Positions 33,132 to 64,000 of a stretch of DNA of 64,000 nt are shown piece after piece (the stretch's first letter is position 1; each line of letters begins with the position of its first letter). The translations under genes and the position numbers were made by a program. Source of the stretch: Hemileia vastatrix (lineage: Eukaryota; Basidiomycota; Pucciniomycetes; Pucciniales; Zaghouaniaceae); assembly GCA_030280995.1 (NCBI GenBank), contig JASXTE010000002.1:41314683-41378682 (forward strand), read 5' to 3'. The notes below the pieces were generated by a model. That model worked only from the letters and a program-made list of their open reading frames with translations, was not told the origin of the DNA and did no database searches.

Positions 33132-33209
33132 TAGATGAGTCCTGCAGGACTAAAAACTGATAATGTGTTGGGTCAATTTGGAAGAGGGCATCCAAAGGGG
33201 GAGTCTCTG

Positions 33210-37682: not shown

Positions 37683-37907
37683 CCAAAACACACTAGCCCC
37701 AATACTGGTGGATTTCAAAATGAAATAAGTCACTTATTTCACTCAAATCCGCACTTTCTCAACCAAAAGTGCTGATTTCACCATCAAGTCCCATTTCACT
37801 GATTTGTCAGCATCATCCCATTCATACGCAGCACTCCGCAGAATAACACTTCATAACTCAAAACATCGTACATCACTTACATCTTCATATCATATCATAT
37901 AAGAGTC

Positions 37908-40213: not shown

Positions 40214-40379
40214 CAGGAAGGGGTGTGTGCCGAGGATTGATGGGTAGGTAGCGAGGAAGGTCAGTGTGTCACATGTGACAGGGATGGGGTAAGAAAGGAA
40301 GGGATGTTTTGTGGCCAAAATGTGGTTGTGAAAAAAAACGGGAAAAAAGTGCTGATTTGAGGTCATAACTGACACCCTT

Positions 40380-40490
40380 TTTTAAAATAAGTGACTTTTT
40401 TGCAAAATTTAAGTGCTGATTTGTAAGTGCTGATTTTGTTTGAAATCCGCACTTAATTTAAGTGCGGATTTTCCAGAACTGACACCCCCT
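40380..40490. repeat. right TIR and subterminal repeats of the Harbinger element
   Basis: AAATCCGCACTTAA immediately followed by TTTAAGTGCGGATTT (40443-40472) forms a palindrome next to the TIR CCAGAACTGACACCCCCT. Variant units AAGTGCTGATTT lie just inside, at about 40410-40440. Confidence 0.75.
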
Positions 40491-40841
40491 ATTGGACCAT
40501 TTGTAGTTAAAAAGATGGTTGGTAATAATGCTGTTGAGGTTATTCTATATGAACCTTATGATAGAAAACATTCAGTATTTCCTATTTCTCTTATAAAACC
40601 ATACCATTCAAATGATACTGCTCTCTTTCCAAGAAGATCAGGAAGGCATAAACAACAACCTGAAGAAATAGTGGAAAAAGCAGAAATTGAAAAGATACTT
40701 AAAAAGAGACACCTTACTAAAGAAAAGGGAGTTGAGTATCTATTAAGATTTAAAAATAAATCAAGTGAATATGACCAGTGGATTCCAGAAAATGAAATCT
40801 CTGATCTTAAAAATCTCTTGAAAAAATTTAAATCTAAATAA
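40491..40841 (+). pseudogene. element 4 integrase C-terminus and chromodomain, part 2
   Basis: Resumes with IGPFVVKKMVGNNAVEV (the SH3-like/GPY region), then DRKHSVFPISLIKPY. A chromodomain-type tail follows: EIEKILKKRHLT, GVEYLLRFKNKSSEYDQW and IPENEIS, ending in a basic KKFKSK and TAA at 40839-40841. Chromodomains of this type direct integration to heterochromatin in related elements (family knowledge). It is in frame with 37196-37599 once the Harbinger insertion is removed. Confidence 0.88.
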
Positions 40842-40954
40842 TACTGTTCATTCAGTATATGTATTATAAAAATTAATTTTTTTATTATTCCATTCCTTAA
40901 GATTAATTAAAATGTCTTAACATTTTTTTTATTGTTTTTTTTGGGGTGAGGGAG

Positions 40955-42131
40955 TGTCAGCCTAAATATCCTTAGGACTGAGTATTTCTTATGCTTAAAA
41001 TAAGATAACCTTAATTAGATTAAGCTTATATCTTAAAAATAAGGTTAAAATAATAATATATATTATTTTATTATATATATATATAATTATTATTCTATTA
41101 TATAATTTATAATAGTTTAAATAGCTTATCCATGGCCTAATAATACTTATTAAGGTGTTAATGGAGTCATAATATACTTATCTTAAGTGATATGAAGTAA
41201 TTATTGACATACATAAGCTTATATGTATACATAAATCTCATATTCAGTGAAATATGCAGTATATTATGTATATTTAGGTATATAAGTGGGTTTTAGCCCC
41301 TTAATAGCCTATAACCTTTGTTTTTCTGCTTATTTTAGGTCATATGGACGAAATCAGTGGACTCACAACGCCTACAGAAGCATAGACACCTATATCAGGC
41401 GCATACACCCAGTTTGGACAACTAAAATTACTTCCTTGGATGGTTATTCACGGATTTATGGGTTGGAAAGATGTTTTTGGGTTAATGTGGATGCTTGGGG
41501 ATGTTATTGGGGGCTTGGACATTTTATTTGTTTCCTTTATATGCTTTTAGTTTCATTAAATCTCTTTTTGATCATTTATTTTACCTGTTTCTTTATGGTA
41601 TCCGCTTTTATCTGGGTTTTCTATTTATGGTATGACTCTGTGTTATTATTAATAGTGATGGAGGGTCCTTACTGGAGGTCTGGGTGTTGAAACTGCTTGA
41701 AGTGGACGCCATGGGGAGGTGATGGGCCCTCACAGTGCTGTAATTGCCGGGGATAGCAGTGACATCATCTGGATTGAAGGTCTGTGCACTCCAGTGGATT
41801 TGGGTATAAGTAAGGAGGGATTTTGACGGTTTATTATCATCATTCAATTACTACACTTCAAACAAACACTACACTACAATTATTAACATTCAGAAATATA
41901 TTATAAAGCCCTTATAAATTGATATTATCTTTATAATAGCTATAACTATATTTTATTCTTCTATTTTCCACCACTAGCATGCATTTAAATCCAAGTATTG
42001 TGAGTTTTATTTGAGTATAACTATTCTATTAGTCTTCCCCTGAGGTTTAATCACTAAATTATTTATTAATAAGTAGTAGGACCATAAAATAACACTATTA
42101 TATCATACTTATATACTAGACTATACTGACA
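40955..42131 (+). repeat. 3' LTR of gypsy element 4
   Basis: A 1177-bp partner of 33210-34386, with about seven visible differences. It is followed by the TSD CTCTG and then the resumed LTR of element X. Confidence 0.92.
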
Positions 42132-43470
42132 CTCTGAGTTCAGTTAAGGCAAGTGTGGGGATGAATGATGAGATGGCTTCCCTGTAGAAAATTTCCCCCA
42201 GAATTTTGGTTTGTTTCTCTGAGTCTTTAATGGTTTGATCTCTATTTGTGTATTTTTTATTTAGGTTTTGAGTCCCCCAAGACTATAAAAGGGGGGGTTC
42301 AAGTCCCCCAAGACTGTAAACTGAGGAATTTTTTTTTATGTTGGCTAAATTCAGAAAGTCTGGAAAAGAGGTCAAGTTTTTCATTTTAAATCAAAACTTC
42401 AGACAAGAATTAAAGTACAGAAGAGAATAAAGAGATGAAGCAAAATTTTCAGCATTAGCTTTGAACTGTTCGGTGAGGTTTTTACTTTTCTAAACTTCCT
42501 GTGGATTTACAGAAAGAGTGGATTAGAAATAGTCAAGCAGAGGATGAATTTATTGAGAAGAATGCTGTTGGAACCTGGTTTTTATATTTGGTAGAAGATT
42601 GGGAGTTGGTGGTTCAATGGTTCCTACATTGTCATTATCAATTCTAGAGATGGGGTTAGCTGGGCAGTCATCAGTATGAAGATCAATATGAAATTTTTTT
42701 TGAAAATTTTAATTATTTATTTATTTACCATCAGAAATACCAGGTATAGTGGAGCTAGAAGTATTGATAGTGGTGCAAAACCTTTTGGAAGGGTGTAGTT
42801 TGCTGACTAATCTGGGTATCAGAATGGAAGGCCAGGATCTTTAGGTACTGGTGGAAGATGAACCAGGTTCACGTGGAGGTGAAGAAGTTGAAGAAGATAG
42901 GGAACCAGGTCTTTAGCAACTCTTCATTAAAGATTAGGAAGCCATCACAAGAGATTCTTTATGGATTAGCTAATGGTGGTATGGTGCAGATAAGAATATT
43001 GTAAATACAGTACTGGCAAGAACCCATTTCAGAGACAGATTTTTGAAAAAGTTTAAACATGGTAGTTTAAGTGAAGAAAAGAATGTGGACATTCTTAATT
43101 GGAGGGAAGATGTGGCCTTCCAAAATTGGCAGGGTACTTGGTTGTATTGTTTGGTGCTGTTTGTGGATGTCTTAGTTGACATTAAATTGTGAATTATAGG
43201 CTATTCTGGTTTTATGGGCTGAATATTTGGACTACTGATATGTGGCTATTATCATTGGATAGCCTCAGATTATCTCTATATTTCATGAAGGCTACTTAGT
43301 CTCATTTTTAATATTTTAATATAACTGTTTGATTTTGTTTTTTATTTTTAGGCTAACATTAAGTCTTATAGTTAAGTTAAGAGTGCCATTAGATAGACCT
43401 AATTTGTCTCTAAAATTCATTTCCTAATGTTATTTTTTCCTAATTTTGTGTTTTAAAGGTTTTTGGTAGC
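42132..43470 (+). repeat. 3' LTR of element X copy 1, right part
   Basis: Continues from 33209. It is collinear in reverse with 58885-57530 of copy 2: hairpin remnant (42153-42201), two AGTCCCCCAAGACT boxes (42265-42330), the antisense gene 2 remnant, then TGTGGATGTCTTAG..GACATT and the TTTTGTGTTTTAAAGG segment also present at 26650. It breaks off at about 43470. Confidence 0.75.
42380..43110 (-). pseudogene. antisense gene 2 of the X LTR, copy 1 (decayed)
   Basis: Aligns in reverse with 58595-57960. Recognisable parts are the C-terminal AAAATTTTCAGCATTAGCTT (58560 region), GGTGGTTCAATGGTTCC (the GTIEAPPP codons), and the run around 42740-42900 that matches the Ser/Pro-rich codons and the donor region. 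The N-terminal cysteine cluster is too decayed to read and the frame is broken throughout. Confidence 0.6.
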
Positions 43471-48052: not shown

Positions 48053-48143
48053 GTGTAGTCAATCCTATAGTACTAGCTATAGGCCTTGACCAAGGGAGTT
48101 GGAAAAAACCCAGAGAGAAAATCCCCTGTCCCTTTATAAAAAT

Positions 48144-48965
48144 TGTCAAGGTACACTTTTAGTCTAGAAGATTTGGTACGTAGTTCTATGAGGATTTAAA
48201 AGGTTTAAATGGGTTCTCAACAAATTTGTACGTATTTCTTAATTCAAAGATGAATTTTTTACTCAATAAAAGAGGTAGGATTAAAATATTAATATAAATT
48301 ATAAATTAGAATTACGCTATTGTAAATACTAATGATATAGAATATAAGAATAAGTGTTTAGTTGGTTAATATTTGTAAAAATGGTTTGGTAAGATAGAAT
48401 GATCAAAAGACAACAAAAAGAGAGGCCTTTTATAGGCAAAGGAGAGACAAAGCACGGAAATCAAATTCTAAAAACAGTAGGAAAATAGAGAGAAAAAGAA
48501 CATTCCAGAAAGAGTATTTCAAATAATAAAGTTATTCCAAAAAGAAGGCGTCAAAAAGATGTATTTACAGAGTATGTCAGAAATACATCAATATTTTTAA
48601 TATTTACTGTAAATGTCAATCCCAAATAAGAAATTTGATTTGTTTGTATATATTTAATATTATTTGAATATTTAAATCTTATTTTATCTTTGTATTTTAT
48701 TTTCTTTAAATATAAAGTTTTATTTTTCCCAACCTGTCAATTGAGCACGGTGTTAGAGAAAAATATAAGGGACAAAATTATAATTTTAATTTTACTTATT
48801 TATTTAATTAGTTAATTTAATTTTTACATTCTGTAAATAGTTAATTTATAACTAATTTTAATGTAACTAAATGATAATTAAATAATAATTAAAGATGATA
48901 AGGTGCGGCTTCATCCAGTAAATAATTACTTATTTCACTGGGTAAGTCTAGTAGCCTGGCTGACA
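48144..48965 (-). repeat. 3' LTR of gypsy element 3
   Basis: TGTCAAGGTACAC...GGCTGACA in + orientation. It differs from 56084-56905 at about four sites (for example TTCTATGAGG against TTCTACGAGG). Confidence 0.95.
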
Positions 48966-48999
48966 CTCCCTTACTCTAAAAAAAATAGTAAAAAAAATG

Positions 49000-51900
49000 C
49001 TATGATTTTTTCTTCTTATACTTTTTTAGTAGAGTAGGAAGGTTAGATATCTCCTTCCTAGGTATCCAAGAATCATATTCAGATGATTTATTCTTGAATC
49101 TCAATAAGTATTCTGTACCTTTCTCAGCAGTGACTATTCTGTCATTTAATATTTTTTCAATTTCTGCTGTCTCAGTGATTTCATTTGGGGTTTTCTTTGG
49201 TCTACCCCTCCTTCTTGGAAATAAATCACTATTGGATGTGTAAGGTTTCAAAAGAGATATTGGAAAAACAGGATGTTTTCTGTCATATGGGGAATACAGA
49301 ATAACTTCAACTGCATTACCTCCAATCATTCTTCTGACAACAAAAGGACCAACAAATGGATCTTTTAATTTGTTATTACCTTGTAAGTTGAAGTGGACTG
49401 TAGAAATCAATACTTCATCACCCTTTTTAAAAGTGTATTCTTTATGGGATTTGTCCTATCTTTTCTTCTCATATTCAAATGATTTTTCAATACATTTTTG
49501 AGCATGATTTCTGCATAGTTGTTGCATTTGAAGAAAAGATTTTACACCAGGATTTATATCCAATTTAGGTATTTTGTTATTGAGAATTTGGGCAGGAGTA
49601 TTAGGAACATATCCAAGCCAGAGCTCAAAAGGCTTTCTTTGAGTAACAGAATGAACAGTGCTATTATAAGCAAATTCTAACCCAGGAAGTAAGGTAACCC
49701 AATCATGAGTGAATCTGTCATTATCTTTATACTCAAGGCCAAAGGCACAATATCTTCTTATCATGTCCTCTAAAGTCTGAATCATTCTTTCAGCTAAACC
49801 ATAAGTCTGAGGGTGATGGGCAGTAGAAAGTTTCAGATCATAACCACAAACATCCATCAGAGACATCCAGAATTCAGAAGTAAATTTAGGGTCTCTGTCA
49901 GAGATTATGGCTTTAGGAAAACCAGCAGTATTAAACATATGAGACCACCATAAGAAAGCTAATTCTTTAGTGGAAACATCCTTGTGGGTAGGGATAAATT
50001 TACACATTTTTGTGAATCTGTCCACAATAACCCAACAAGAGTTATAACTGTCTTTACCAGCAATAGGTAATCCTGTTACAAAATCCATGTTTATTATTTG
50101 CCATGGGGCATCAGGAGGTTCAATATGTTGCATTATTCCTGCTCTTTTACCAGTTAATCTTTTTGATTTTTGGCATGAATCACAGGATTCAACATATAAT
50201 TTTGTGTCTTCAGACATATTAGCCCACCAAGCAGTGTTCTTAATTCTGATCATTGTTTTGTCAAGATCAAAATGTCCAGCTAATATGTCATCATGACAAA
50301 TTTTCAAGATGATTTCTTTCATAGAAGGAGGAATAACAATAACATTACTCAACTTTCTTCTATAATATAGATATCCTTCATCAATTGAAAATTTTCCTTT
50401 TTCCAAACCTTTTTGGTACTTTGGTGGAAGGGTTTTAATTAATGCTTGTATTGAAGCATTCTTTGGATCATTTAATATGGTGCATAACTTTTTCAAGTCA
50501 GTGTCCTTATCATATGATTCCAGAATAAGCTGTAATAGCTCTTCCTCCATATCAACCACATATATCCCATGGATATGGATAATTTCATCCTCAGGATCAT
50601 AAGCAGGATTTGAGTCATCATTTGGTAAGGGTAACCTTGATAACATATCCACATTTGAGTGACCAATACCAGCTCTGTGAATAATTGTCATTCTCCCTCT
50701 GTACTCTTGAACAGCCAGCTGCCATCTAAACATATGTCTATTAGGTGTTTTCAAGTTTAAAAGGGATTTAACTGCACTGCAGTCAGTGACAAGTTCAAAT
50801 TTCTGGTCATCTAGGTAATAATGAAGCTTTTCTACAGCCCATACTACAGCTAAACACTCTAATTGAGTAGCACCATATTTCAATTCACTATTTCTCAAGG
50901 TTCTTGAAGTATAACAAATTACTACTTCTGAAACTTTATCATTTATCACTTGTTTTTGATGGAGGGCAGCACCAAGACCAATGAAACTGGCATCAGTGTA
51001 CAAAACAAATGGTTGATCAAAGTCAGGTAAAGCAAGAATTGGTGCTGACATCAAACAGTGTTTCATAGTGTCAAAGGCTCTTTGTCTTTCACTATTCCAG
51101 ACAAAAGCAACATCCTTTCTAGTTAATTGGGTAAGGGGTAAAGCTATGACTTGGTAATTTTTAATATACTGTCTATAGTATCCACACATTCCCAAAAAAC
51201 TTTGGAGCTCTCTTACTGTTGTAGGAGCCTTTCACCTGTTGTATGGCTGCCACTTTGTTCTGGTCAACACATATCTGTAAGCCTGAAACAACATGACCAA
51301 GAACTTTTAAAGAATGGAAACCAAATTTACATTTCTTCAAAGCAAGTGTCATATTTATTTCATCCATTTTCTGGAATACTTTACACAGGTGTTTAAGATG
51401 GTCCTCAAATGTTTTTGAGAATATAATGATATCATCAATATAAACCATCAGCCAACCTTCAATTATCTCTTGATGGAATGTGTTATCCATTACTTTTTGG
51501 AAAACAGAAGGGGCATTTTTAGGGCCAAATGGCATCCTAATATACTTATAAATACCCATATGAGTGGCAATCATCAGAAAGTTCTGAGAATTTTTCTCAA
51601 CAGGTACCTGGTGATATCCCTTATTACCATCCAAACAGCTGATATATTTAGCACCCTGTAAAGTAGCATGTATAGAGCTGATTCTAGGTAAAGGATAGAT
51701 ATCATCAACAGTATAAGTATTTAGTGCTCTATAATCACCACATAACCTGGCTTTATCTTTCTCATAAGAAATTAGGACAGGTGAGATAACACAATATTTA
51801 GGTGTTTCAACTACCTTTTCAATAATATTCATTCTTAAAAGGGTAGAGATATTATCTTCAATATCTTTTCTCTTTGTGGGAGAAGCAGGATAAGGCTTCT

Positions 51901-52240
51901 TCTTTAAACTAGGTGGTATATCAGTTAATGGGCAAGACAATGAAAGTTTCATTTCCTCTTTAACTAATCCCAGTTCATGTGACCCATGAGCAAAGGCCAT
52001 AGGAAAAGATTTTATCAAGTTAATGATGGAATCTTTATCCTCACCAGAAAGTTGTTCTCCAAAAGAGGCATTGTCAATTTCAGACATAAGGGCATGCATT
52101 TCCTTTGTAGATCTTCCTTTATATTGAACCACAGAATTACATGTGTTCAATTCTGGTTTTAATAATTTTTTAGGGGAGGAAATTTTAAATTTTCTCTTCC
52201 CATTCAACCCCATTGTGAAACATTGGTTTGAAGGATCCAA
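49000..52240 (-). pseudogene. gypsy element 3 pol: RT-RNase H-integrase-chromodomain (broken)
   Basis: From 52240 down: RT with CLDGNKGYHQ (about 51640), FGPKNAPSVFQ and YIDD (about 51437), then a one-base insertion near 51225 (GTGAAAGGCTCC) that shifts the frame. It continues with FLGMCGYYRQYIKN, RNase H YTDASFIGLGAALHQ (about 51000), and the integrase HHCC-type module with CDSCQKSK (about 50170). The catalytic acids are MDF (50085), SDRD (about 49900) and AERM (about 49795). A TAG replaces Trp after FEYEKKR (about 49457), then come the GPFVVRRM region and a chromodomain (GTEYLLRFKNKSSEYDSWIP, about 49090). All catalytic residues seen are intact; only the stops and the shift disable it. Confidence 0.93.
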
Positions 52241-52258
52241 TTTTATGCCATACTTGGT

Positions 52259-55024
52259 TTAAATATCATTCCCTACAATAAACCAATTGCTCAAGTTATC
52301 ATTTTTCATGACAACAAAATCACAAATAGCTCTTACAAAACCATGGTTATATTTAAAAAACACTGTGGCTTTGTATTTACCAATGGGGGACAAAACAGAG
52401 CCATACCCTCTCCAATTTTCAGAAATGATAGGCAACAGTTTAGATTTATAGTCTTGATCTACTGAGGCAAGTGCTCTTTCAGATACTACACTTCCTCCAG
52501 CTCCAGAATCCAGAACAACTTCAATGCTGGTTCCATTAATCAAGACTGGTGCCTTAAGAGGGGCAATAACAATTGAGTTATCCTCAATGTTCTTTATGAT
52601 CTCAGCATCCTCAACTGTAGATAAATCATTATTATCAACGTCAATAGTATTTAAATAATGAATATCTTCTTCCAGCATCAAGATTTCTTGTTGAGATTCA
52701 TATGAAATATTGCTGGCACAATCACTTGATGTATCATCCAGTGCCACTGTGTCATCAGCATGCTCCTCTGTTTGTTCCACAAGATTTATCTTCTTGTCAC
52801 AAACATGGCCTTTCTGCCAAGGCTTGTTGCACTTGAAGAAAGTGTTTGTTGCATACTTCTTTGGTGCAACAGGGGCAGAAGGTTTACCAACCTTTTCCAG
52901 AGGTTTCTGTTGGTAAGTGGAGGGTTTCTCCAAAGGGGTCCTAGGAATGAATCTTCTTGCATCATACTTATTGTTTAGAAGTATCTCATTGCAAGTATTA
53001 ATGAAAGAAGAGGGTTCTTTGGAGAACTCAGTCCTAGCCACAATCAAGTCTCTCAGAGACATTGGTAATTTATAGAGGATCCTGTCCTTCCATAAATCAA
53101 ACTCCATATTTGGGTCCATTGCCCTTAAGATTTTTACAAGTTTCATTAAAAACTCAATAGGTTTATCAGTAGAAGAGCTATATCTAGTTTCCTCATACTG
53201 CCTTTGTTGAGCCATTCTGAACTTGGAGCCACCAAATTGTGCTTTAATTAATTTCTTCCAATCCTCCCATGAGTAGTCATTCCCATCCAGGAGAACAGAT
53301 TCATACCACATCAGGGCAACATTAGTGAACAAAGAAATTAATTTGGACACAATTTCCTCATCTGGGAGTTTGTAAGAATTTTTTAAATTATTAATTCTGC
53401 AAATAAATTGTTGCCAATCAGAGGAAGAATCACCATCAAATGTTGGGTACTGGTCAAGTTTTGGCCAATTCTTTTGATTTGAAGGAGTCTCCTTAGTACT
53501 AGCTTGTTTCTGAGTAAGAAGCAGCTGTAATTTCTCTAATTGTGCTGAAATCTCATTGTTTAATCCTTCTGTTTCAGATCCTGGTGCATCATCAGTTTTT
53601 GATGGAAACTCAGTGTTATCAACAGGTATTTCTGGATCAATTTTTATTTTAGATGAACTAGCCACAGGTACTGGTTGAGAATCCTGCACTATATGTTCCT
53701 TCACAGAATTGTCAGAATATTTTTGGTCATTTAACAATGAGTTCAATGTTTCTTCAATGGTTGTTAGTCTTGTTTTCATTCTTGGAAGACTAGATAAACT
53801 TTCATTGACAGTTGCAAAAGATAATTGATTTTTATGTTGAAAAGATGACAACTGGTCACTCAATCTTTTCAGATTTATCTTATCTATCTCTACCTCCTGG
53901 CAACAGGCAGATACAGTATCTTTTAGTTTAGACAAATCATTTTTTATATTTTGTCATAAAGCAATTTTCTTTTCATGGGTTGCTTTGTAATGAGACAATT
54001 CATCAGAGACTCTCTGTGCTTCACTTTTTAATGCTTGATAACCCTGATCAGTTAACAAACTATTATATCTCTGAGTCGATTGCATATTGTTCATTATATG
54101 ATTTTGCTTGGCAATAATATCTCTCAAGTGCTCATCATTAATTCTTGCTACATCTGGAGTGTTTCTCAATAAGGAAACTGAGTAACTTTCCAGACTCTCA
54201 TAGAACTCAGGGTCAAGAGTTTCATCAATCACAGCCATATCAGGATTAATCATTGAGGTAGCAATTAAAAGTAATGGATTGGATACATGAGATAACTGTC
54301 TACTATTCCCAGCCTCTATAGGTCTCAAGGTTTCATCTTGCCTTCCAGATTTACCTGAAGGAACAGAGTCAGCCACAAGAAAAGGCACTTGAGAATCAAT
54401 AGAGGGACGTACCAGGGTTTGCTGGGTATCACCATATTGGGCTTCCTTCTTCTTTTGCCTCCTTGATAAGGGTGTGGAGGAGTGGGGTTTGCCTGGGTGG
54501 GCCTTGATGGACCTACCTGAGGTAATTGATGCTGATTTTGAGCTAAGTAGTCCCACTTTGTGTTGATCCAGTCCCACTGCCACTTGGACACTTCTACCAT
54601 CTCTTGGGATTGGGGAGCCAATTGTTGTTGATCCCTGGGAGGAAGAGGTTTCCTTTTCTCTTGGAGAGAAGTATTTTTTATTTTCTCCCATTCTTCCAAG
54701 GCATCTACCCTTACCTTTAGTTTTAAGCTGTCTGTCTTTAACTCCTTTATGTGGGTTGACAGATTCTTTATCTGCTGGGACAACGGCATCTTTTTTATCT
54801 TGAAGCCTCTTGGAAGCTCTTCTGGTGGGTTCGTCCTGGGTTTCTGATCCTGAGTATTGTCCACTAGGATTTCTACTTCTTCCATTTCCACATCCTGTTT
54901 GGGGCAAGGATTTATTAGTTTGAGAAATTCTTCTTGTTAAAGGAGAACTTACAGAAGTAGGCTCATCATAATCAATTAAGTCTAGTTCTTCTTCACGTGC
55001 AGTAAAACCACTTTGATCAGTCAT
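52259..55024 (-). pseudogene. gypsy element 3 gag and protease (one internal TGA, one TAA at the end)
   Basis: ATG at 55024. The N-terminal 300 residues are polar; an in-frame TGA near 53957 follows HEKKIAL. The frame goes on through a coiled coil, the capsid (WPKLDQYPTFDGDSSSDWQ, about 53450), a reduced knuckle FFKCNKPWQKGHVC (about 52830), an acidic linker, and the protease with VVLDSGAGGSVVSE (about 52500). A TAA near 52258 sits where element 1 has TTA (ND-I-stop-T), so it is a Leu-to-stop change; pol continues in the same frame. Gag and Pol appear to have been one polyprotein. Confidence 0.9.
54325..54891 (-). CDS. overlapping ORF in the gag N-terminus of element 3 (188 aa)
   Basis: Open in a different frame within gag. 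It has a Leu/Lys-rich helix (SQQIKNLSTHIKELKTDSLK), KWQWDWINTKWDYL, PPHPYQGGKRRRK and KPW followed by a GTACGT donor-like site. The parallel frame in element 4 (34923-35444) keeps the same motif order. The frame is free of stops although the main frame is already broken nearby. Whether it is translated is unknown. Confidence 0.5.
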   Translation of the reverse strand: MEMEEVEILVDNTQDQKPRTNPPEELPRGFKIKKMPLSQQIKNLSTHIKELKTDSLKLKVRVDALEEWEKIKNTSLQEKRKPLPPRDQQQLAPQSQEMVEVSKWQWDWINTKWDYLAQNQHQLPQVGPSRPTQANPTPPHPYQGGKRRRKPNMVIPSKPWYVPLLILKCLFLWLTLFLQVNLEGKMKP

Positions 55025-55029
55025 TTTAA

Positions 55030-55720
55030 GATTCTACTGAAATGAAGGAAAAGAGACAAAAATTAATTAGTCTTTTATTTTTAATTTTTATTTAACAGAA
55101 ATAAAAATAAAAATAATAAAAAATCTTTTTAGGACAAAAATCAACTTAAATAAAATTAATAAAAAAAAATTTAAAACCAGGATAATGCAATCAACTGTAG
55201 AAATAAATTAGAATTTCTATTAATTTTTATTTTCAGGATTTAAATCAACTAATTTATTACCAGGATTTATTGTCAACTGAAATAATCAAATATGAATCTT
55301 TATTAATAAAAATTATTTTAACTGATTACTTAACTACCAGGACTTAATGTCAACTGAAGTAATTTAAATATGAATTCTATTACTTAAAAAGATTTATTGG
55401 ATTACCAGGACTCAAAGTCAACTGAAGTAATGAAATGTTAATTATTTATTAAAAAAAAATATAATTGTCAGGACAATTTGTCAACTGTAACAATTAATTA
55501 ATCAGGACAAATGTCAACTGTAAAATTATAATAATTATTTTATTTAATAAAATATATTATTGTCAGGACAGTTTGTCAACTGGAACAATTAAAATTCAAA
55601 TTAATCAGGACAATTGTCAACTGAAAAATGATAATAATTAATATTAATATATAATTATTTTATTACCTCTGGGACTAAGAACAGTTATTGCTCTATTATG
55701 GTCAACCAGGAAAAATAAAA
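55030..55720 (-). repeat. leader repeat array of gypsy element 3
   Basis: About ten copies of CAGGAYNNNNTGTCAACTG spaced 40-80 bp apart, for example near 55178, 55259, 55338, 55396, 55459, 55501, 55561 and 55603. They are separated by AT-rich filler. Element 1 keeps three decayed copies. They lie in the 5' untranslated leader, where packaging or translation signals usually sit. Confidence 0.75.
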
Positions 55721-56083
55721 AAAAATATAATAATAAAATTAAATTCCAATTACCAGACACCTCCCCCTGCAAAATGAGCAAATTAATGCCACTTACAGAG
55801 TGCTGAGTAAAAGGAAATACGTCGCAAATGAAGAGTGAAGAGTAACCCACAAATAGTAATCACAATAATTACCACGATATATACGATCTTTAGTCAGTAT
55901 ATGAACTTAAGTTTTGGAGCGCGGTTTGATTCCCGTTCGCAGCAAAAACTTTTATCACGTGACGTATGACGTTCGTCGTTTTCTTGCCTCCACTCGTCCT
56001 TTACAGGTGCTTCTACGCCGATGGTCCTCTCGATTACGCCTCAAGTAACGTTGCGCCGTCGATATTTCGGAAAGGTTCCCAAT
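55721..56083 (-). other. 5' leader of gypsy element 3 next to the 5' LTR
   Basis: GC-richer than the rest. Read on the minus strand, the LTR is followed by ATTGGGAACCTTTCC. On the + strand, GCGCGGTTTGATTCCCGTTCGCAGCA, split here as GCGCGGTTTGATTCC and CGTTCGCAGCA (about 55920-55945), resembles the T-arm and acceptor end of a tRNA. A decayed counterpart is in element 1 at 8222-8247. Confidence 0.5.
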
Positions 56084-56905
56084 TGTCAAGGTACACTTTT
56101 AGTCTAGAAGATTTGGTACGTAGTTCTACGAGGATTTAAAAGGTTTAAATGGGTTCTCAACAAATTTGTACGTATTTCTAAATTCAAAGATGAATTTTTT
56201 ACTCAATAAAAGAGGTAGGATTAAAATATTAATATAAATTATAAATTAGAATTACGCTATTGTAAATACTAATGATATAGAATATAAGAATAAGTGTTTA
56301 GTTGGTTAATAGTTGTAAAAATGGTTTGGTAAGATAGAATGATCAAAAGACAACAAAAAGAGAGGCCTTTTATAGGCAAAGGAGAGACAAAGCACGGAAA
56401 TCAAATTCTAAAAACAGTAGGAAAAGAGAGAGAAAAAGAACATTCCAGAAAGAGTATTTCAAATAATAAAGTTATTCCAAAAAGAAGGCGTCAAAAAGAT
56501 GTATTTACAGAGTATGTCAGAAATACATCAATATTTTTAATATTTACTGTAAATGTCAATCCCAAATAAGAAATTTGATTTGTTTGTATATATTTAATAT
56601 TATTTGAATATTTAAATCTTATTTTATCTTTGTATTTTATTTTCTTTAAATATAAAGTTTTATTTTTCCCAACCTGTCAATTGAGCACGGTGTTAGAGAA
56701 AAATATAAGGGACAAAATTATAATTTTAATTTTACTTATTTATTTAATTAGTTAATTTAATTTTTACATTCTGTAAATAGTTAATTTATAACTAATTTTA
56801 ATGTAACTAAATGATAATTAAATAATAATTAAAGATGATAAGGTGCGGCTTCATCCAGTAAATAATTACTTATTTCACTGGGTAAGTCTAGTAGCCTGGC
56901 TGACA
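56084..56905 (-). repeat. 5' LTR of gypsy element 3
   Basis: Partner of 48144-48965. It is followed by AAAAT and the resumed LTR of element X (AAAGTGAGATTTACCTGCTAC). Confidence 0.95.
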
Positions 56906-57960
56906 AAAATAAAGTGAGATTTACCTGCTACAGTAAGTTGGTTCCTGTTTGATGGAGCCCATTTTCCAACACACTTGACCGTATGATCAGCCAAGAAATT
57001 ATTCTCCAGACAGACTACCAAGCCAAAGAACTGAAATGTAGACCAATTTCCACACCAGAGAAAGCAATGATACTTGATGTAGGTTGCAAATCCACACCAG
57101 ACACAGCAATAATACTTGATATGGCTTGTAAGACTATCCCAGAGAAGCCAGTTGCCAAGTTAAGTTAAATGAAGAACTCACCTTCCAACAAACAAAGCCA
57201 ATTGTGGCCAAAAAACAGTGAAAACTGAGTGAGGAACAAGGATATCACCTCTGGATGGTTGTATGATAATTAAAGTTGCCCCAAACTGTCTTTTATTCAC
57301 TATATACACAAAGACCACTATCTAAGAGCCCATGCACACCAACAAATTTGGCATTTCTGAGCGCCAAATTGCATAAAACCCCTCTAGAAACGCTTCCCAG
57401 CCTTCTTGAACTGAGGCGTACGGTCCGTCTGACATCAGGAGGCCCGCTAGAGGTGGCCAGACAACCCTGAAGCCAGAAAACCATCAAAAACCTCCAAAAA
57501 TACCAAAAATACATAGAAAAATCTACTACAACTGCTAAAACCTTTAAAACACATAATTAGGTTATAACAAAATTTTGACATGAAATGTAGAGAAAAATTA
57601 GCCCATTCTAACAGTACTAAGCACTCAACCCTAAGACTCAAAGTTAGCCTGTAAAATACAAAAAACAAAATTAAACAGCTATCTTTTTAAATAAAAAATG
57701 AGAAATTATCACCTTAATACTTAAACTCTGAGAAATGTCATAAAGTCATTAAATATAGAGAAATCCCGGGGCTATCAAATGGTAGTACTCACATCCCTGC
57801 AGTCCCAATATTCACAGAATAATTCCAGAAAAACACCCAATTATTATATAATGCCATTTAAGACATATCAAAACAATTCCAAATAGAACAACAAAGGGAT
57901 ACACCAATGTTGGAAGACCACATCCTCCCTTCAATAGAGAATTTCCACATTCTCCTTCAT
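56906..57960 (-). repeat. X LTR segment upstream of the antisense genes (copy 2)
   Basis: Reverse counterpart of 27290-26281. No gene. It contains the short GC-rich stretch at 57405-57470 (GTACGGTCCGTCTGACATCA, GGCCCGC), which has a near relative at 59655-59695 (CAGACGGCCCGCCTGACG), so the same GC-rich word occurs twice in this AT-rich LTR. Confidence 0.65.
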
Positions 57961-57970
57961 CAAAACCACC

Positions 57971-58595
57971 ATGTTCAGCTTTCTTTCCAAATCTGCTACT
58001 GACATGGGTCCTTGCCAATACTGCATTGACAACAATCTCATCTGTACCATCACACCACCAGCTCATCCCTACAGAGCCTCCTGTGATGCCTGTCACTCTA
58101 GGAAGAAGACTTGTTTCAGACCTGGTCCATTTTCCTCTTCAACATCTTCTCCTCCTCCAAAACCTGACCCACCTTCTACCAGCACCAAAAGATCCAGATC
58201 ATTCATCCTAATCCCCAGACTGGTAAGCAAATTACACCCTTCAAAAATGAGTTCCAACCCTGCTACAACCACTAGCTCTACAATCCCTGGTCCTTCTGAT
58301 GGTAAGCCCAATACTTCTTCATACTGAAATTAAATCTTAAAAATTTCCAGTTAGTTTTCATCCAGAAAGTGATTATAAAAATGTGGGAACCATTGAAGCA
58401 CCCCCACCTAATCCATTCCTCACCATCAAAGACAAATTCCAACAACATTCTTCTCAACAGAAGAATCTCATTCTAAATTACTTCCAATCAACTCCTTCCA
58501 GGAATCCAAAGGACCTTGAGAAAAGAAAGAACCTCATTCACCAGTTCAAAGCCAATGCTGAACATTTTGTTACATCTCTTGATTCTTTTCTGTAA
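57971..58595 (+). CDS. antisense gene 2 of the X LTR: Zn2Cys6-like protein, two exons, 191 aa
   Basis: Exon 1 is 57971-58301 and exon 2 is 58351-58595. The 49-nt intron begins GTAAGC and ends TTTCCAG, and the frame is kept (SD then VSFHPE). The ATG has a good context (ACCACCATG). The N-terminus has C15-x2-C18-x6-C25-x12-C38-x2-C41-x6-C48, the exact cysteine spacing of a fungal binuclear zinc cluster, with RKK between the last two cysteines. A Ser/Pro-rich linker follows, then a helical C-terminus (IKDKFQQHSSQQKNLILNYF, ending SLDSFL). No stop or shift is seen. Such clusters bind DNA in fungal regulators. It is far shorter than usual regulators and lies antisense in an LTR. The decayed copy is at 42380-43110. 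Confidence 0.65.
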
Positions 58596-58639
58596 TTGCT
58601 TCTTGCCTGAAAATCTTGATTTAGAAATAAAAAAAATAA

Positions 58640-59100
58640 TTCCCTCAGTTTAAAGTCTTGGGGGACTAATCCTCAGTTTTAAGTCTTGGGGACTAAAAGC
58701 CTTCATTTTATAGTCTTGGGGGACTCAAAACCCTCAGTTTATAGTTTTGGGGGACTCAAAACCTAAATCAAAAAGACAGAACCAGAGATCAAAACATTAA
58801 AGACCAAAGAAACAAAATAACATTCCGGGGTAACTGTTCTACAGAGCAGCCAGCTCATCAGTTACCCCCACACCTTCCTTATAAAAATTCAGAGACTCCC
58901 CCTTGGATTCCCTCTTCCAGAATCACACCAACTCCCATTATCAGTTTATAGTCCTAAAGAACTCAACTATTAAACCATCCTTAGTTTATAGACTTGGGGG
59001 ACTGTCCATTTCTCAGATTAAAGTCTTGATGGACTGACCAGTGTTCAGTTTAAAGTCTTGATGGACTAACAAGTGTTCAGTTTAAAGGCTTTACGGACTA
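58640..59100 (+). repeat. cluster of AGTTTAAAGTCTTGGGGGACT boxes
   Basis: Boxes of the type CAGTTTAWAGTCTTGGGGGAC occur about nine times: four between 58645 and 58760, five between 58940 and 59095, some as AGTCTTGATGGACT. Others are near 63085 and 63350, and in reverse at 42265, 42310 and in 33060-33170. They lie between antisense genes 2 and 1, so they could be promoter or terminator elements of either. Confidence 0.75.
58827..58868. repeat. GGGGTAACTG hairpin, copy 2, first
   Basis: GGGGTAACTG, then TTCTACAGAGCAGCCAGCTC and AT, then CAGTTACCCC: a 10-bp perfect stem with a 22-nt loop. The loop is conserved as well as the stem in the two further copies. Confidence 0.85.
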
Positions 59101-59247
59101 ACAAACCTGCATAAAAAAGGACAGAGCCACCTCCATGCACAATGCTCTGCAGCCAACCTGCTTAACTTCCACTCTTTCTTCATCATCTGCACATCACTGA
59201 TAAAACTTTCATTCATCTCTTTTCTCTTCATTATTTTTCCTTCACAG

Positions 59248-60627
59248 ATCACAACTGGATCCTCAGATTTTGATCCATTGGACCTTCCCTGCTTCACTGC
59301 TCCAAAGGACTATGCTTGTAAACAGTGCATACACATGTGCAGAACTTTCACTTTCACTCTTCCTACTCCTCAGGCCAAATTCTATAACAGAGCCTTGATT
59401 CTTGTAACTCTAAAAAGAAAAGATGTGACAGAAACCCCAACTATCCAATACCTCCACCTTCACCTTCACATAAATATTTATTTCAAATCTCCTACCAGGT
59501 CACCAGAACTTGGACCTTCTTCTCCTTCCAGAAAATCACGCTTTTATATTCCCAAAACACTCCCTAAAAGACCTAATTTATCTTCTCAAGAAACAGCCTT
59601 TATCTCAGCAAATATGGCTAAAAAAACTTCAAAATCAGCTCCAAGCTTCTAGACTCCATCCAGACGGCCCGCCTGACGTTGGGCAGGCCGCCTGCCTTGA
59701 AGAAAGCAAAAATCAGGCTCAAAACTGCCAAATCCAGCCAGATAACAGCCAAATTCCTCCATCAAACACTAACAACTCTACACAACAACCTCCTAAGTCT
59801 CCCAGAGCAATGCGTACCACCACCATTTCTTCATCTGACCACACCAAAAATTCCAACATCTTTAGAAAGCCTGATTGAGGACCCTCTGAAAGCACCAGAG
59901 CACCCAAAACTGCTCCCAAACAAAAAAATCCTGTTACTTTTCAAGAATAACTAACTTCACCTCTCCTCTAGCCACCAACTATTCCTCTGATAGTTCCCTT
60001 TCTTCTAGATCTTCATCTAGCAAATCACAATCAGCTTCCAGGTCACCTTCTCCTGGTCTTTCCTTCAACTAACCTGGCACTTCTCTGCCAGTATCTAACC
60101 CACCTGCGCCAAGTAATAATATAAACAACAACTACAACAACAGCAGACCTGATTCTCCACCCAGGCCACAGGAACCTCCTTCTTCTCCTTCATCTTCTCA
60201 ACAAAATTTAGAGGATGACCATGAGAATACATACCTCCATCTAATTGATCTTCCTTCAACATCTTTTCAGAGTTCTTCAACAGCTCAACATAAAATAACA
60301 CCTAAGAATGATGTGTTCTAACATGCTTAAGGCTTTTTCTCTTCATTGTCTGTTGAATGAATTTGAAAAGAATTTGAGGAAAAAGCTCCTTGATGAACAC
60401 TAAAAGATGTCTAGAATAATCAAGCACACCTTCCAACACTCTATCCCCACTTCTTCCACTTCTTCCCAAAAATTACCTTCTAATCTGGTCCCTGAACATT
60501 ACAACTCATATACTCTTTCCAGCTGCCTACATCACAAAGAACACAGTTCTTCCTACAATCCTGAAAAAAAGCAAAAATGACTCTATAATCCGGACCAACC
60601 GCCAGAGGCTTCTTCTTCCAGACATTA
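59248..60627 (+). pseudogene. antisense gene 1 of the X LTR, copy 2 (frameshifted)
   Basis: Opens after an acceptor-like TTCACAG at 59241-59247 with LDLPCFTAPKDYACKQC (about 59280). The second cysteine group is readable only in another frame (SCNSKKKRCDRNP, about 59395; C-x6-C). After an intron-like gap ending CCTACCAG (about 59500) comes SPTRSPELGPSSPS, as in copy 1. A Ser/Pro/Gln/Asn-rich middle is broken by stops, and the conserved C-terminal block (MCSNMLKAFSLH, RIIKHTFQHSIP, LVPEHYNSY) is at 60312-60510. It is the partner of 33131-31209. Comparing the two gives a protein with an N-terminal Cys cluster and a conserved C-terminal domain of unknown function. Confidence 0.6.
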
Positions 60628-60639
60628 AATTAAATAAAA

Positions 60640-60818
60640 AAGAAATTAATAATTCACTAAATAAAGAGAGCAATAATAGTTAGAAGATATATATAAAAAA
60701 TTTGTTTAATTTTGATTTAATTTTTAATTTTTAATTTTTAATTTGATTTTAATATTAATATTAATTTTAATTTTAATATTATTTTAATTTTAATTTTAAT
60801 TTTAATTTTTGTTTCCTT
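60640..60818. other. AT-rich lead into the hexanucleotide array
   Basis: TTTAATTTT-type sequence grades into the regular array. No gene. Confidence 0.5.
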
Positions 60819-61378
60819 TTTATTTTTATTTTTATTTTTATTTTTATTTTTATTTTTATTTTTATTTTTATTTTTATTTTTATTTTTATTTTTATTTTTA
60901 TTTTTATTTTTATTTTTATTTTTATTTTTATTTTTATTTTTATTTTTATTTTTATTTTTATTTTTATTTTAATTTTAATTTTTATTTTTATTTTTATTTT
61001 TATTTTTATTTTTATTTTTATTTTTATTTTTATTTTTATTTTTATTTTTATTTTTATTTTTATTTTTATTTTTATTTTTATTTTTATTTTTATTTTTATT
61101 TTTATTTTTATTTTTATTTTTATTTTTATTTTTATTTTTATTTTTATTTTTATTTTTATTTTTATTTTTATTTTTATTTTTATTTTTATTTTTATTTTTA
61201 TTTTTATTTTTATTTTTATTTTTATTTTTATTTTTATTTTTATTTTTATTTTTATTTTTATTTTTATTTTTATTTTTATTTTTATTTTTATTTTTATTTT
61301 TATTTTTATTTTTATTTTTATTTTTATTTTTATTTTTATTTTTATTTTTATTTTTATTTTTATGCTTTTTTTATTTTA

Positions 61379-61409
<31 letters not shown>

Positions 61410-62360
61410 TTATTTTTTATTTTTATTTTTATTTTTATTTTTATTTTTATTTTTATTTTTATTTTTATTTTTATTTTTATTTTTATTTTTATTTTTATTT
61501 TTATTTTTATTTTTATTTTTATTTTTATTTTTATTTTTATTTTTATTTTTATTTTTATTTTTATTTTTATTTTTATTTTTATTTTTATTTTTATTTTTAT
61601 TTTTATTTTTATTTTTATTTTTATTTTTATTTTTATTTTTATTTTTATTTTTATTTTTATTTTTATTTTTATTTTTATTTTTATTTTTATTTTTATTTTT
61701 ATTTTTATTTTTATTTTTATTTTTATTTTTATTTTTATTTTTATTTTTATTTTTATTTTTATTTTTATTTTTATTTTTATTTTTATTTTTATTTTTATTT
61801 TTATTTTTATTTTTATTTTTATTTTTATTTTTATTTTTATTTTTATTTTTATTTTTATTTTTATTTTTATTTTTATTTTTATTTTTATTTTTATTTTTAT
61901 TTTTATTTTTATTTTTATTTTTATTTTTATTTTTATTTTTATTTTTATTTTTATTTTTATTTTTATTTTTATTTTTATTTTTATTTTTATTTTTATTTTT
62001 ATTTTTATTTTTATTTTTATTTTTATTTTTATTTTTATTTTTATTTTTATTTTTATTTTTATTTTTATTTTTATTTTTATTTTTATTTTTATTTTTATTT
62101 TTATTTTTATTTTTATTTTTATTTTTATTTTTATTTTTATTTTTATTTTTATTTTTATTTTTATTTTTATTTTTATTTTTATTTTTATTTTCATTTTTAT
62201 TTTTATTTTTATTTTTATTTTTATTTTTATTTTTATTTTTATTTTTATTTTTATTTTTATTTTTATTTTTATTTTTATTTTTATTTTTATTTTTATTTTT
62301 ATTTTTATTTTTATTTTTATTTTTATTTTTATTTTTATTTTTATTTTTATTTTTATTTGT
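60819..62360. repeat. (ATTTTT)n hexanucleotide array, about 1.5 kb
   Basis: About 255 tandem copies of ATTTTT with very few interruptions: ATTTTAATTTTAATTTTT near 60968, ATGCTTTTTTTATTTT near 61363, ATTTTATTTTATTTTTTATT near 61402, and one C near 62192. Being a multiple of two codons, it gives false long frames of alternating Phe-Tyr or Phe-Ile and, in reverse, Lys-Ile. Copy 1 has only a short T-rich run at the matching place (31157-31190). Confidence 0.97.
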
Positions 62361-63180
62361 ATTTGTATTTTTAATTTTAATTTTAATTTTAATTTTACTG
62401 ATTATTACTTAAACTACTAACATATCAAAAAAATTTGAAAATAATTAAACAAAATTTCCCAACAAAATATGAAAAATGAGTAATTAAAATGAAATGAATA
62501 ATAATAAGATGAGATAAATAATAATTACAAATGGTATCCCCCAGCCCATTGATGAGCTGATCCCCTGATAGCTTACCTACATCCAAGTGCACCTTGATAT
62601 GGATACACCATTAAATAATTTTTAAATGAATTGAGATTAAAATAAATTAAGAAAATAATATCAGTAACGATAAGATGAAATGAAATTAAATTAAATTAAT
62701 AAAATAAAAAAAATATGATAAGGATAAAAAAGGAAAATAGCATTTCCCGTCCAATTAATGAGTCTTTCCCCACCAATGCTTTCCTACATCTAGGTGACCC
62801 TGATTTCGTGACACCATATAATATAATTTATTACTTTTCCCCTTCTTTATATCCTAAGAACCCCCATAAAAATTAAAAGAAAAAAAGAGAAAAAAGAAAA
62901 TAATCTAACACTTCTATCTAACACACCCATAGACTCAAAAATAAAAGGAAAAAAAATGTGCGGCTCCATAGAAAGTCCAGTCCAAGGAAATGATCACTGT
63001 GTGGGCTCCCTCCAATAAGTAAAAATGATGGTATACCACCAGTGATTTACCACCAATCTAAATTGACCAAAGAAGCTAGTCCCAAGCCAGTTTAAAGTCA
63101 TAGTGAACTTGATACCTGAATAACATAAACCATAACTATGAATCATATAGGACAAAAAAATACTTGAAACAGAAAATATG
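62361..63180 (-). repeat. X LTR segment upstream of the hexanucleotide array (copy 2)
   Basis: Reverse counterpart of 30770-30150 in copy 1: the GATGAGCTGATCCCCTGATA box with CCTACATCCAAG, a second diverged copy of the same box at 62740-62810 (AATGAGTCTTTCCCCACC), and the GGCTCC...CAGTCCAAGGAAATGATCAC segment. No gene. Confidence 0.65.
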
Positions 63181-63222
63181 GGGTAACTGTTCTACAGAGC
63201 AGCCAGCTCATCAGTTACCCCC
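63181..63222. repeat. GGGGTAACTG hairpin, copy 2, second
   Basis: Same stem and loop as 58827-58868, about 4.35 kb away in the same LTR. Confidence 0.85.
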
Positions 63223-63441
63223 ACACTTTCTATAATAAAATCTAGAAGCCCCCCTGGTTGCATTCTAACAAAAAAAACACAACATCCAAAACAATAAATT
63301 AAAACTAATTTGAGTGAAGAGTTCAGCACTTGAAGGCCAAAATAATTTCAGGTTTAAAGTCATAGAGGAATAAAACCTGTGAAAAGAAACCAATACTAGG
63401 GTTCAACCAAATTAAGAGAAGGGTTTGGAAACAGACAATCT

Positions 63442-63483
63442 GGAGTAACTGTTCTACAGAGCAGTCAGCTCATCAGTTACCCC
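63442..63483. repeat. GGGGTAACTG hairpin, copy 2, third
   Basis: GGAGTAACTG with the same loop (one change) and CAGTTACCCC. One stem pair is weakened. It lies about 70 bp inside the LTR start. Confidence 0.8.
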
Positions 63484-63589
63484 TACACTTTCCAAGATCA
63501 TACCTAGAAGCCCCACCCATGGGTACCTTCTAACAAAAAAAATTTTCCAACAAAACAGATGCACAGCATCACCAAAATCCAAAATTTAA

Positions 63590-64000
63590 ATAATGGTCCA
63601 TAATTTATCCTCATTGTAAAGTCAATCTTCTTCACTTCTAGTGCCTCTTGGGTAAAATCTCTTAGCCTAATCAGAAGCCACTTTCTTCTTTAAGACTGAA
63701 TTATCTAGCTTCTCCAAAACATAAGAACCTCCAGAAAGCTAAGATCTGACTCTGTAAGGCCCATTCCATCTGTCAGCAAACATTTTTCCCCACTGACTCT
63801 CCAAACTTCTATTATACACCAAAACCAAAAACCATGTTTCAAGGGATTCCTGAGTCTATGAGCCAACTACTTGTCCCAGTTTCAGACTGATTGTTTTGTT
63901 ATCTTCATCATTCTAGAGTATTTCTTCTCTTGACATTCCTCTCTACATTCCAACTGGTCCATCCAGGCAGAGAGAAAATCTTCTGTTGAGAATACATCTT
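63590..64000 (-). pseudogene. element X integrase C-terminus (GPY/F module), partial
   Basis: The minus strand reads STEDFLSAWMDQLE, then FLVLVYNRSLESQWGKMFAD and RWNGPYRV, SYVLEKLDNSVLKKKV and RFYPRG, the typical end of Ty3/gypsy integrase, which helps hold the target DNA. Two stops (after RVRS and after VASD) and others upstream break the frame, so this copy is dead. The sequence continues past the window edge. It fixes the strand of element X copy 2 and shows that the LTR genes are antisense to pol. Confidence 0.85.

What the first reader, a model, noticed from the sequence alone, without database searches (positions are those of the whole stretch)
48053..63552. Giant (about 6.7 kb) LTR carrying two genes antisense to gag-pol
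Two copies of element X in opposite orientation (26281-43470 and 48053-64000) share the same order of landmarks in the LTR: hairpin, box, antisense gene 1, hairpin, antisense gene 2, LTR end. In copy 1 the LTR end sequence is present both before gag (26320-26680) and at the far end (43140-43470) in direct orientation. In copy 2 the LTR directly follows integrase. LTRs of this size with two antisense genes are unusual, and the genes would be duplicated with every insertion.
Basis: partly seen in the sequence, partly recalled or inferred. Interest (0 to 1): 0.88.

Follow-up and report, generated by a model that had tools for sequence, protein, structure and literature searches.

The report
Rust retrotransposon with two antisense genes
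The supposed giant repeat is really the tail end of a separate 13-kb mobile element in what appears to be the coffee leaf rust genome; it carries two conserved, intron-containing genes pointing backwards between its replication genes and an ordinary 1.1-kb terminal repeat, a known but poorly understood arrangement with an unusual kind of gene.

Summary
The landmarks are real, the giant LTR is not. Five copies with both LTRs were found; their 4-bp target duplications are perfect in three and differ at one base in two. The '6.7-kb LTR' is 1.0 kb of Y2's 3' LTR plus 5.7 kb of the antisense-gene region. The genes are real proteins: gene 2 exon 1 is 330 bp in 31 of 31 aligned copies; between subfamilies dN/dS is 0.17 (gene 2) and 0.09-0.11 (gene 1 ends); antisense GT-AG introns are conserved. 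Both encode a six-cysteine Zn2Cys6-like domain with swapped halves and are probably paralogues. A hairpin box occurs three times per element. New variant of the pol-3'LTR antisense-gene class (Grande, Retand, Boty). A self-regulating role is inferred; there is no RNA evidence.

The parts
48054..48143 (-). Outer end of the 3' LTR of Y2 (includes X2 target duplication AAAAT 48139-48143)
   Evidence: 93.3% to Y4 LTR bases 94229-94318; ends ...GACTACA
48144..56905 (-). X2, a separate Gypsy element inserted into the 3' LTR of Y2; LTRs 48144-48965 and 56084-56905; gag-pol 49000-55033
   Evidence: 99.5% direct repeat, TSD AAAAT, RNase H and integrase Pfam matches
56906..57922 (-). Inner part of the 3' LTR of Y2 (starts TGTGG at 57922)
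   Evidence: 79.8% to Y4 LTR; PPT-like GAAGGGAGGA before it
57923..63624 (.).
   Evidence: Aligns to Y4 100969-105189
57971..58301 (+). Antisense gene 2, exon 1 (ATG 49 bases from the LTR edge), six-cysteine domain; open in Y2
58302..58350 (+). Intron of antisense gene 2 (GT...AG)
   Evidence: GT kept in 30 of 31 copies, AG in 30 of 31
58351..58595 (+). Antisense gene 2, exon 2; open in Y2
   Evidence: dN/dS 0.29 Y5-Y2
58827..58868 (-). Hairpin box, copy between gene 2 and gene 1
59250..60610 (+). Antisense gene 1 (approximate ends); reading frame interrupted in Y2
60705..62397 (.). (TTTATT)n array, about 282 units, in the Y2 pol-3'LTR region
63180..63221 (-). Hairpin box, second copy
63441..63482 (-). 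Hairpin box, third copy, next to the integrase end (approximate ends)
63625..64000 (-). Start of the Y2 integrase part; continues beyond the window to 64506, where element X3 is inserted
   Evidence: 83.1% to Y4 100074-100968; X3 LTRs in L002/L003
26286..27326 (+). 5' LTR of Y1
   Evidence: 71.5-74.6% to Y4 LTR
27655..28311 (+). gag remnant of Y1 (most of pol is missing)
   Evidence: ORFs resemble the Y4 gag ORF by eye; Y4 gag-pol query gave no match here above the cut-off
29772..33209 (.). Antisense-gene region of Y1, first part (gene 1 on - strand, broken)
33210..42131 (+). X1, a separate Gypsy element inserted into Y1; LTRs 33210-34386 and 40955-42131; TSD CTCTG
42132..43110 (.). Antisense-gene region of Y1, second part (gene 2 on - strand, broken by a one-base insertion and stops)
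43111..43469 (+). Truncated 3' LTR of Y1
   Evidence: 75.6% to 26286-26674

Best explanation
The feature is the 3' part of element Y, a ~13-kb Gypsy-type LTR retrotransposon of a rust fungus (by assembly statistics Hemileia vastatrix). Order: 5' LTR (~1.09 kb), PBS, gag, protease, RT, integrase, two hairpin boxes, antisense gene 1, third hairpin box, antisense gene 2, PPT, 3' LTR. Shown: this anatomy; that both antisense genes are or were translated proteins kept by selection between subfamilies; that they carry introns on the antisense strand; that X1 and X2 are insertions into Y. Inferred: the genes are transcribed from an antisense promoter in or at the 3' LTR (the gene 2 ATG is 49 bases from the LTR edge); because the genomic RNA is the opposite strand, their introns are not spliced out of it and so survive retrotransposition; the six-cysteine domains bind DNA as a Zn2Cys6-like cluster and tune transcription or copy number of Y itself, as proposed for antisense genes of plant Retand/Grande and shown for HTLV HBZ. 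I give the anatomy and coding status about 0.95, and the self-regulator role about 0.45.
For: Y4: LTRs 93231-94318 and 105190-106282, 96.0% identical, TSD ACGT/ACGT, PBS TGGCGCCCAACGTGGGG, PPT GGAGGGAGGA; Pfam aspartyl protease 3.1e-6, RVT_1 2.2e-4 (below its cut-off), Integrase_H2C2 1.3e-16 in that order. The antisense region lies once in the element, outside both LTRs. Same arrangement in Y5 (with a 29-kb insert) and, piecewise, in the C42 copy (5' LTR+PBS+gag, integrase, gene 1, gene 2, 3' LTR; TSD ATAC/ATAC), C26 (TSD CCGG/CCGG) and C84 (ACGT/ACTT). Gene 2 exon 1 is 330 bp in 31 of 31 copies; 11 in-frame stops in total against 64 and 216 in the other forward frames and 106, 111, 316 in the reverse ones. 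dN/dS Y5-Y2: exon 1 0.17, exon 2 0.29; gene 1 first 105 codons Y4-Y2 0.09, Y5-Y2 0.11; gene 1 last exon 0.10-0.27 in 7 of 8 pairs with a value, 0.54 for the close pair Y4-Y5. Wrong-frame controls mostly 1 or more. Introns: gene 2 donor 30/31, acceptor 30/31; gene 1 donor 4 of 4, acceptor 3 of 4 copies that hold it. Open two-exon gene 2 in 10 of 18 Y4-like and 14 of 31 of the other set.
Against: No RNA or protein evidence. The Zn_clus matches are below Pfam's cut-off (19.4, 20.4 and 14.1 bits against 21) and cover half the profile each. No homologue in the protein collection, and AlphaFold2 gave no usable model (pLDDT 49.7). The middle of gene 1 showed no constraint in the frame tested (0.69-1.00; Y5, whose frame was used, is shifted there). 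One wrong-frame control was low: the reverse strand in register, 0.29, as expected when codon positions mirror. Y4 and Y3 carry stops in gene 2, Y1 a frame shift. Within the Y2-like group dN/dS is 0.66, i.e. near-neutral decay after insertion. Only 3 of 10 distant copies tested showed the 5' LTR at the predicted place.
Confidence: 0.75

Rival explanations
1. A giant LTR of 6.7 kb with two antisense genes in each LTR of element X.
For: Shared order of landmarks in two inverted copies, and the direct repeat at both ends of copy 1.
Against: X1 and X2 have their own 1177- and 822-bp LTRs with perfect TSDs; Y LTRs are about 1.09 kb and the gene region is single-copy per element.
Confidence: 0.01
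2. The antisense region is an unrelated host gene pair or another transposon inserted once into an ancestor of Y and now only hitch-hiking, without function for Y.
For: Genes look like host transcription-factor fragments; pol-3'LTR antisense genes of unknown origin exist in other families (PMC7264820, passages).
Against: Kept in five of five local Y copies and in the 39 other best-scoring places for each of two queries (best-scoring by selection); purifying selection between subfamilies argues that the proteins matter for spread.
Confidence: 0.15
3. The proteins do not matter; what is selected is antisense RNA (silencing or interference with sense transcripts), and the open frames are relics.
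For: Antisense transcripts can regulate retroelements without coding (discussed in PMC7264820, passages).
Against: Third-position excess in the antisense frame and wrong-frame dN/dS of 1 or more; frame kept over 330 bp in 31 of 31 copies.
Confidence: 0.1
4. The proteins act on the RNA or integration side (export, packaging, nuclear import or target choice), perhaps through the hairpin boxes, rather than on LTR transcription.
For: Three hairpin boxes per element in 5 of 5 copies, placed between pol and the 3' LTR; 14 of 209 pair cells are G-U on the sense strand against 8 that would be G-U on the antisense strand.
Against: Covariation is weak: pairs with two-sided change 2, reached by 293 of 500 shuffles; no Rfam family over the boxes; nothing links protein and box.
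Confidence: 0.2

Closest known systems
Retand lineage of plant Gypsy elements
   Same: Long region between pol and 3' LTR (2.9-6.6 kb there, 4.2 kb in Y4), antisense ORFs with a putative DNA-binding domain, tandem arrays in that region (PMC11963269, passages)
   Different: Plants only; TRP28 domain there, none found here by Pfam; here two paralogous six-cysteine genes with introns, in a fungus
Maize Grande (gene 23), rice RIRE2, bean PvRetro13
   Same: Antisense gene between pol and 3' LTR; Grande's is transcribed from its own upstream promoter and its protein is nuclear (PMC7264820, passages)
   Different: One antisense gene is described in the passages seen; no zinc cluster; plant hosts
Boty / BcGypsy1 of Botrytis cinerea with antisense gene brtn
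   Same: Fungal LTR retrotransposon with an antisense additional gene (PMC7264820 passage; title of Zhao et al. 2011 seen in the reference list of PMC8365987)
   Different: One gene; I did not see its sequence, so relatedness was not tested
HTLV-1 HBZ
   Same: Antisense gene near the 3' LTR with a nuclear regulatory product (mentioned in PMC11963269 and PMC7264820 passages); spliced (recalled)
   Different: A retrovirus with a leucine-zipper protein (recalled); works-like comparison only
Fungal Zn2Cys6 (GAL4-type) domain, PF00172
   Same: Six cysteines as two C-x2-C-x6-C triplets, basic stretch K-K/R-K in one triplet
   Different: Triplets in swapped order: the first matches profile 18-35, the second 1-15; sub-threshold scores

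Membership tests
Ty3/Gypsy LTR retrotransposon (element Y) | Paired direct LTRs starting TG and ending CA | tested here: met
   Y4 TGTGG...CTACA, 1088/1093 bp, 96.0%; also Y5, C42, C26, C84
Ty3/Gypsy LTR retrotransposon (element Y) | Target-site duplication | tested here: met
   4 bp: Y4 ACGT/ACGT, C42 ATAC/ATAC, C26 CCGG/CCGG; one mismatch in Y5 and C84
Ty3/Gypsy LTR retrotransposon (element Y) | PBS after 5' LTR, PPT before 3' LTR | tested here: met
   TGGCGCCCAACGTGGGG and GGAGGGAGGA; PBS seen also in Y5, C42, C26, C84 with changes in some; tRNA-Lys identity is recalled
Ty3/Gypsy LTR retrotransposon (element Y) | Domain order protease, RT, integrase | tested here: met
   Pfam on Y4 ORFs; the RT match is below its cut-off
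Elements with antisense ORF between pol and 3' LTR (aORF-3R) | ORF antisense to gag-pol, located between integrase and 3' LTR | tested here: met
   Y4 102637-103922 and 104504-105150 on the - strand
Elements with antisense ORF between pol and 3' LTR (aORF-3R) | Present in most copies of the family | tested here: inconclusive
   5 of 5 local copies; elsewhere only best-scoring places were seen (40 of 10,573 and 40 of 4,980 first-look candidates)
Elements with antisense ORF between pol and 3' LTR (aORF-3R) | Antisense transcription | not testable with these tools
   No RNA data
Retand lineage | TRP28 (PF04195) antisense ORF | tested here: not met
   No such match in the ORFs scanned
Zn2Cys6 transcription factor (PF00172) | Profile match above the curated cut-off | tested here: not met
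   Best 20.4 bits against 21
Zn2Cys6 transcription factor (PF00172) | C-x2-C-x6-C ... C-x2-C-x6-C spacing | tested here: met
   Gene 2 linker 12 residues, gene 1 linker 15; order of halves swapped
Element with LTR of several kb holding genes | Both LTRs contain the genes | tested here: not met
   LTR about 1.09 kb, genes single-copy in Y4

The most novel reading that the evidence does not exclude
Y carries a self-made antisense control module: two duplicated, spliced genes for a circularly permuted zinc-cluster protein, driven from the 3' LTR, acting through three built-in palindromic hairpin boxes to set sense transcription or RNA fate of the element - a fungal counterpart of retroviral HBZ/Rev-type control that arose independently of plant Retand and Grande.
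Probability: 0.22. Interest if true: 0.75.

Novelty: new variant of a known kind. Interest (0 to 1): 0.5.

Why it matters
Antisense genes between pol and the 3' LTR have turned up in plants and in Boty, but their role is unknown (PMC7264820, passages). Here there are two paralogous ones with a recognisable DNA-binding-like motif, introns that prove which strand is meant, a signature of selection, and thousands of candidate places in one genome, so the question 'what do these antisense genes do for the element' becomes testable from strand-specific RNA data and copy comparisons. It also shows how nested insertions can mimic a giant LTR.

Tried and rejected
Giant LTR: rejected by own LTRs and TSDs of X1/X2 and by paired Y LTRs. 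Y2 as a solo LTR: rejected, it continues into integrase and gag beyond the window. Structure prediction of gene 2 exon 1 (20 sequences) failed, pLDDT 49.7, so no fold search was made. PDB sequence search gave one chance-level match, E 0.58. Protein homologue searches gave none at E 0.01. Rfam gave two sub-cut-off matches in 56900-64000, neither over a hairpin box. Paper searches; no paper on such an element in rust fungi appeared in the listings seen, and 'LTR retrotransposon' + 'Zn2Cys6' + 'antisense' gave 0 papers; subscription papers are not covered. First analysis of the gene 1 last exon used the wrong phase (values 0.92-1.71); redone in all three phases. In one search one of eight stretches (L021) was misplaced and gave no match; one of ten gene 1 stretches (L068) gave no match. 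The 3' LTR ends of C260, C103, C348 (20.66 Mb) and C579 were not reached by the stretches fetched.
Full report
Where it is. The window lies in contig C338 of an assembly of 747,610,610 bases in 791 contigs. One contig (C26) is 71,415,227 bases long, exactly the largest scaffold of the Hemileia vastatrix Race I assembly, which has 747,980,110 bases in 794 scaffolds (PMC10652848, part 1 of 2 of the text read).

Self-comparison of the window shows that both gag-pol units have ordinary LTRs. X2: 48144-48965 and 56084-56905, 99.5% identical, with AAAAT on both sides; X1: 33210-34386 and 40955-42131, 99.4%, with CTCTG on both sides. A third element, X0, has LTRs at 2908-4149 and 8336-9578. The sequence around X1 and X2 that carries the hairpins and antisense genes is a different repeat, Y. 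The Y1 sequences left and right of X1 correspond to Y2 59035-58890 and 58894-57537: the five shared bases are the target duplication, so X1 jumped into an intact Y1 region. X2 sits inside the 3' LTR of Y2, whose outer end is 48054-48143 and inner part 56906-57922.

What Y is. Flanking stretches of the same contig hold further copies. Y4 is uninterrupted: LTRs 93231-94318 and 105190-106282 (window coordinates continued to the right), 96.0% identical, TSD ACGT/ACGT, PBS and PPT in place. ORFs for gag-protease, RT, RNase H/integrase run to 100968 on the + strand; Pfam finds aspartyl protease, RT (below cut-off) and Integrase_H2C2 in Gypsy order. Between 100969 and 105189 lie two genes on the other strand. 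Y2 and Y3 form a tandem on the - strand with three LTRs: 91745-92807, 79410-80470 and the X2-split one; Y5 is 130638-141668 plus 170930-173050 with about 29 kb inserted between. Y1 keeps LTR, a gag remnant and the antisense region but has lost most of pol and the end of its 3' LTR.

Copies elsewhere. A query of Y2 LTR plus gene 2 gave 10,573 first-look candidates; the 40 scored (one is Y2 itself) match nearly the whole query, the 39 others at 87-90%. A Y4 gene 2 query gave 4,980 candidates; 40 scored, the 39 others at 95-97%. These are the best places, not a random sample, and candidates are not copies. I tested ten distant copies for the second LTR by fetching the predicted place: three of ten (C42, C26, C84) have it, followed by PBS and gag; one (C579) holds the 3' LTR of another copy there; six show no LTR there, perhaps because of nested insertions. 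C42 runs 24185627-24198960 with ATAC on both sides, and integrase, gene 1 and gene 2 were each found at the expected places. C26 runs 42680873-42693872 with CCGG on both sides; C84 8808464-8821479 with ACGT/ACTT. Y5 has ACAA/ACGA.

The antisense genes. Gene 2 starts 49 bases from the 3' LTR edge. Exon 1 codes for a six-cysteine domain C-x2-C-x6-C-x12-C-x2-C-x6-C and a Ser/Pro-rich tail; exon 2 for about 80-86 residues. In 27 of 28 fetched Y2-like stretches (the 28th was misplaced) plus Y2-Y5, exon 1 is 330 bases in 31 of 31, while Y1, not in that set, has a one-base insertion. The intron keeps GT in 30 of 31 and AG in 30 of 31; the whole two-exon frame is open in 14 of 31. Among Y4-like copies 10 of 18 are open (16 fetched plus Y4 and Y5). 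Gene 1 has the same domain with a 15-residue linker; its intron has the donor GTAAGTACC in 4 of 4 copies that hold it and AG in 3 of 4. The two domains are 31-35% identical over the aligned part, which I read as an old duplication. Introns with GT-AG on the antisense strand, kept in a retroelement whose genomic RNA is the other strand, show which strand was meant to be mRNA.

Selection. Pairwise Nei-Gojobori values in the antisense frame: gene 2 exon 1 Y5-Y2 dS 1.07, dN 0.19, ratio 0.17, differences by codon position 23/16/47; exon 2 0.29. Other pairs range from 0.17 to 0.73 in exon 1; medians of Y5, Y4, Y3 against 28 Y2-like copies are 0.20, 0.21, 0.30, and 0.66 within the Y2-like group, where neutral decay since insertion dominates. 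Gene 1, first 105 codons: 0.09-0.38 in the eight pairs computed; last exon 0.10-0.27 in seven pairs, 0.54 for Y4-Y5 and undefined for Y2-Y1. The middle of gene 1 gives 0.69-1.00, but in a frame that is shifted in the reference copy, so it says nothing. Controls in other frames are 0.93 to 2.66 except the in-register reverse strand, 0.29.

Domain. Pfam Zn_clus matches are weak and half-length: the first triplet of gene 2 matches profile 18-35 (E 0.0011 and 0.00055), the second triplet of gene 1 matches 1-15 (E 0.052). So the halves seem to stand in swapped order. This is a lead; no model or homologue backs it.

Hairpin boxes. A short-word search of the 244 kb with four boxes found 15 places, which are three per Y element in five of five: two next to the integrase end and one between gene 2 and gene 1. 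Arms of 10 bases (GGGGTAACTG/CAGTTACCCC) enclose a second short stem. 90.0% of pair cells are standard; covariation is only suggestive (5 two-sided cells, reached by 10 of 500 shuffles, but the number of such pairs, 2, is reached by 293 of 500).

Mechanism and place among known systems. Position, orientation, size of the region, tandem arrays and a DNA-binding-like product match the Retand pattern and the wider class of antisense ORFs between pol and 3' LTR (PMC11963269 and PMC7264820, passages only); a fungal case with one antisense gene, brtn in Boty, is known. I therefore file Y as a member of that class and as a new variant: two paralogous, intron-bearing, six-cysteine genes plus a thrice-repeated hairpin in a rust fungus. 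That they regulate Y from the 3' LTR is the most likely role in my view but is inferred.

Noticed in passing
window 37596-40491: X1's integrase is interrupted by a PIF/Harbinger-like insertion with DDE_Tnp_4 transposase ORFs 37857-39167; a related stretch lies inverted at 13448-14017. It also holds a 335-bp tandem duplication 39533-40213.
   Followed up: partly
window 60705-62397: About 282 units of TTTATT inside the Y2 pol-3'LTR region, a 1.7-kb expansion not seen at that place in Y3 and Y4.
   Followed up: no
window 48054 to 92807 (beyond the window, loci L002, L003, L005): Y2 and Y3 form an LTR-internal-LTR-internal-LTR tandem with X2 and X3 nested in it; the outer flanks show no matching TSD by eye.
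   Followed up: partly
Y3 (L003) and Y4 (L007), gene 2 exon 1: Both copies carry stop codons at the same two neighbouring codons of the first cysteine triplet although their subfamilies differ elsewhere; shared conversion or chance.
   Followed up: no
window 43564-44284: A Gypsy pol fragment directly follows the truncated 3' LTR of Y1; 84.3% to X3's pol.
   Followed up: no
window 58642-58763 and 58983-59104: 31-32-bp tandem units (CCCTCAGTTTAAAGTCTTGGGGGACT...) between gene 2 and gene 1; similar units are visible in Y3, Y4, Y5 alignments.
   Followed up: no
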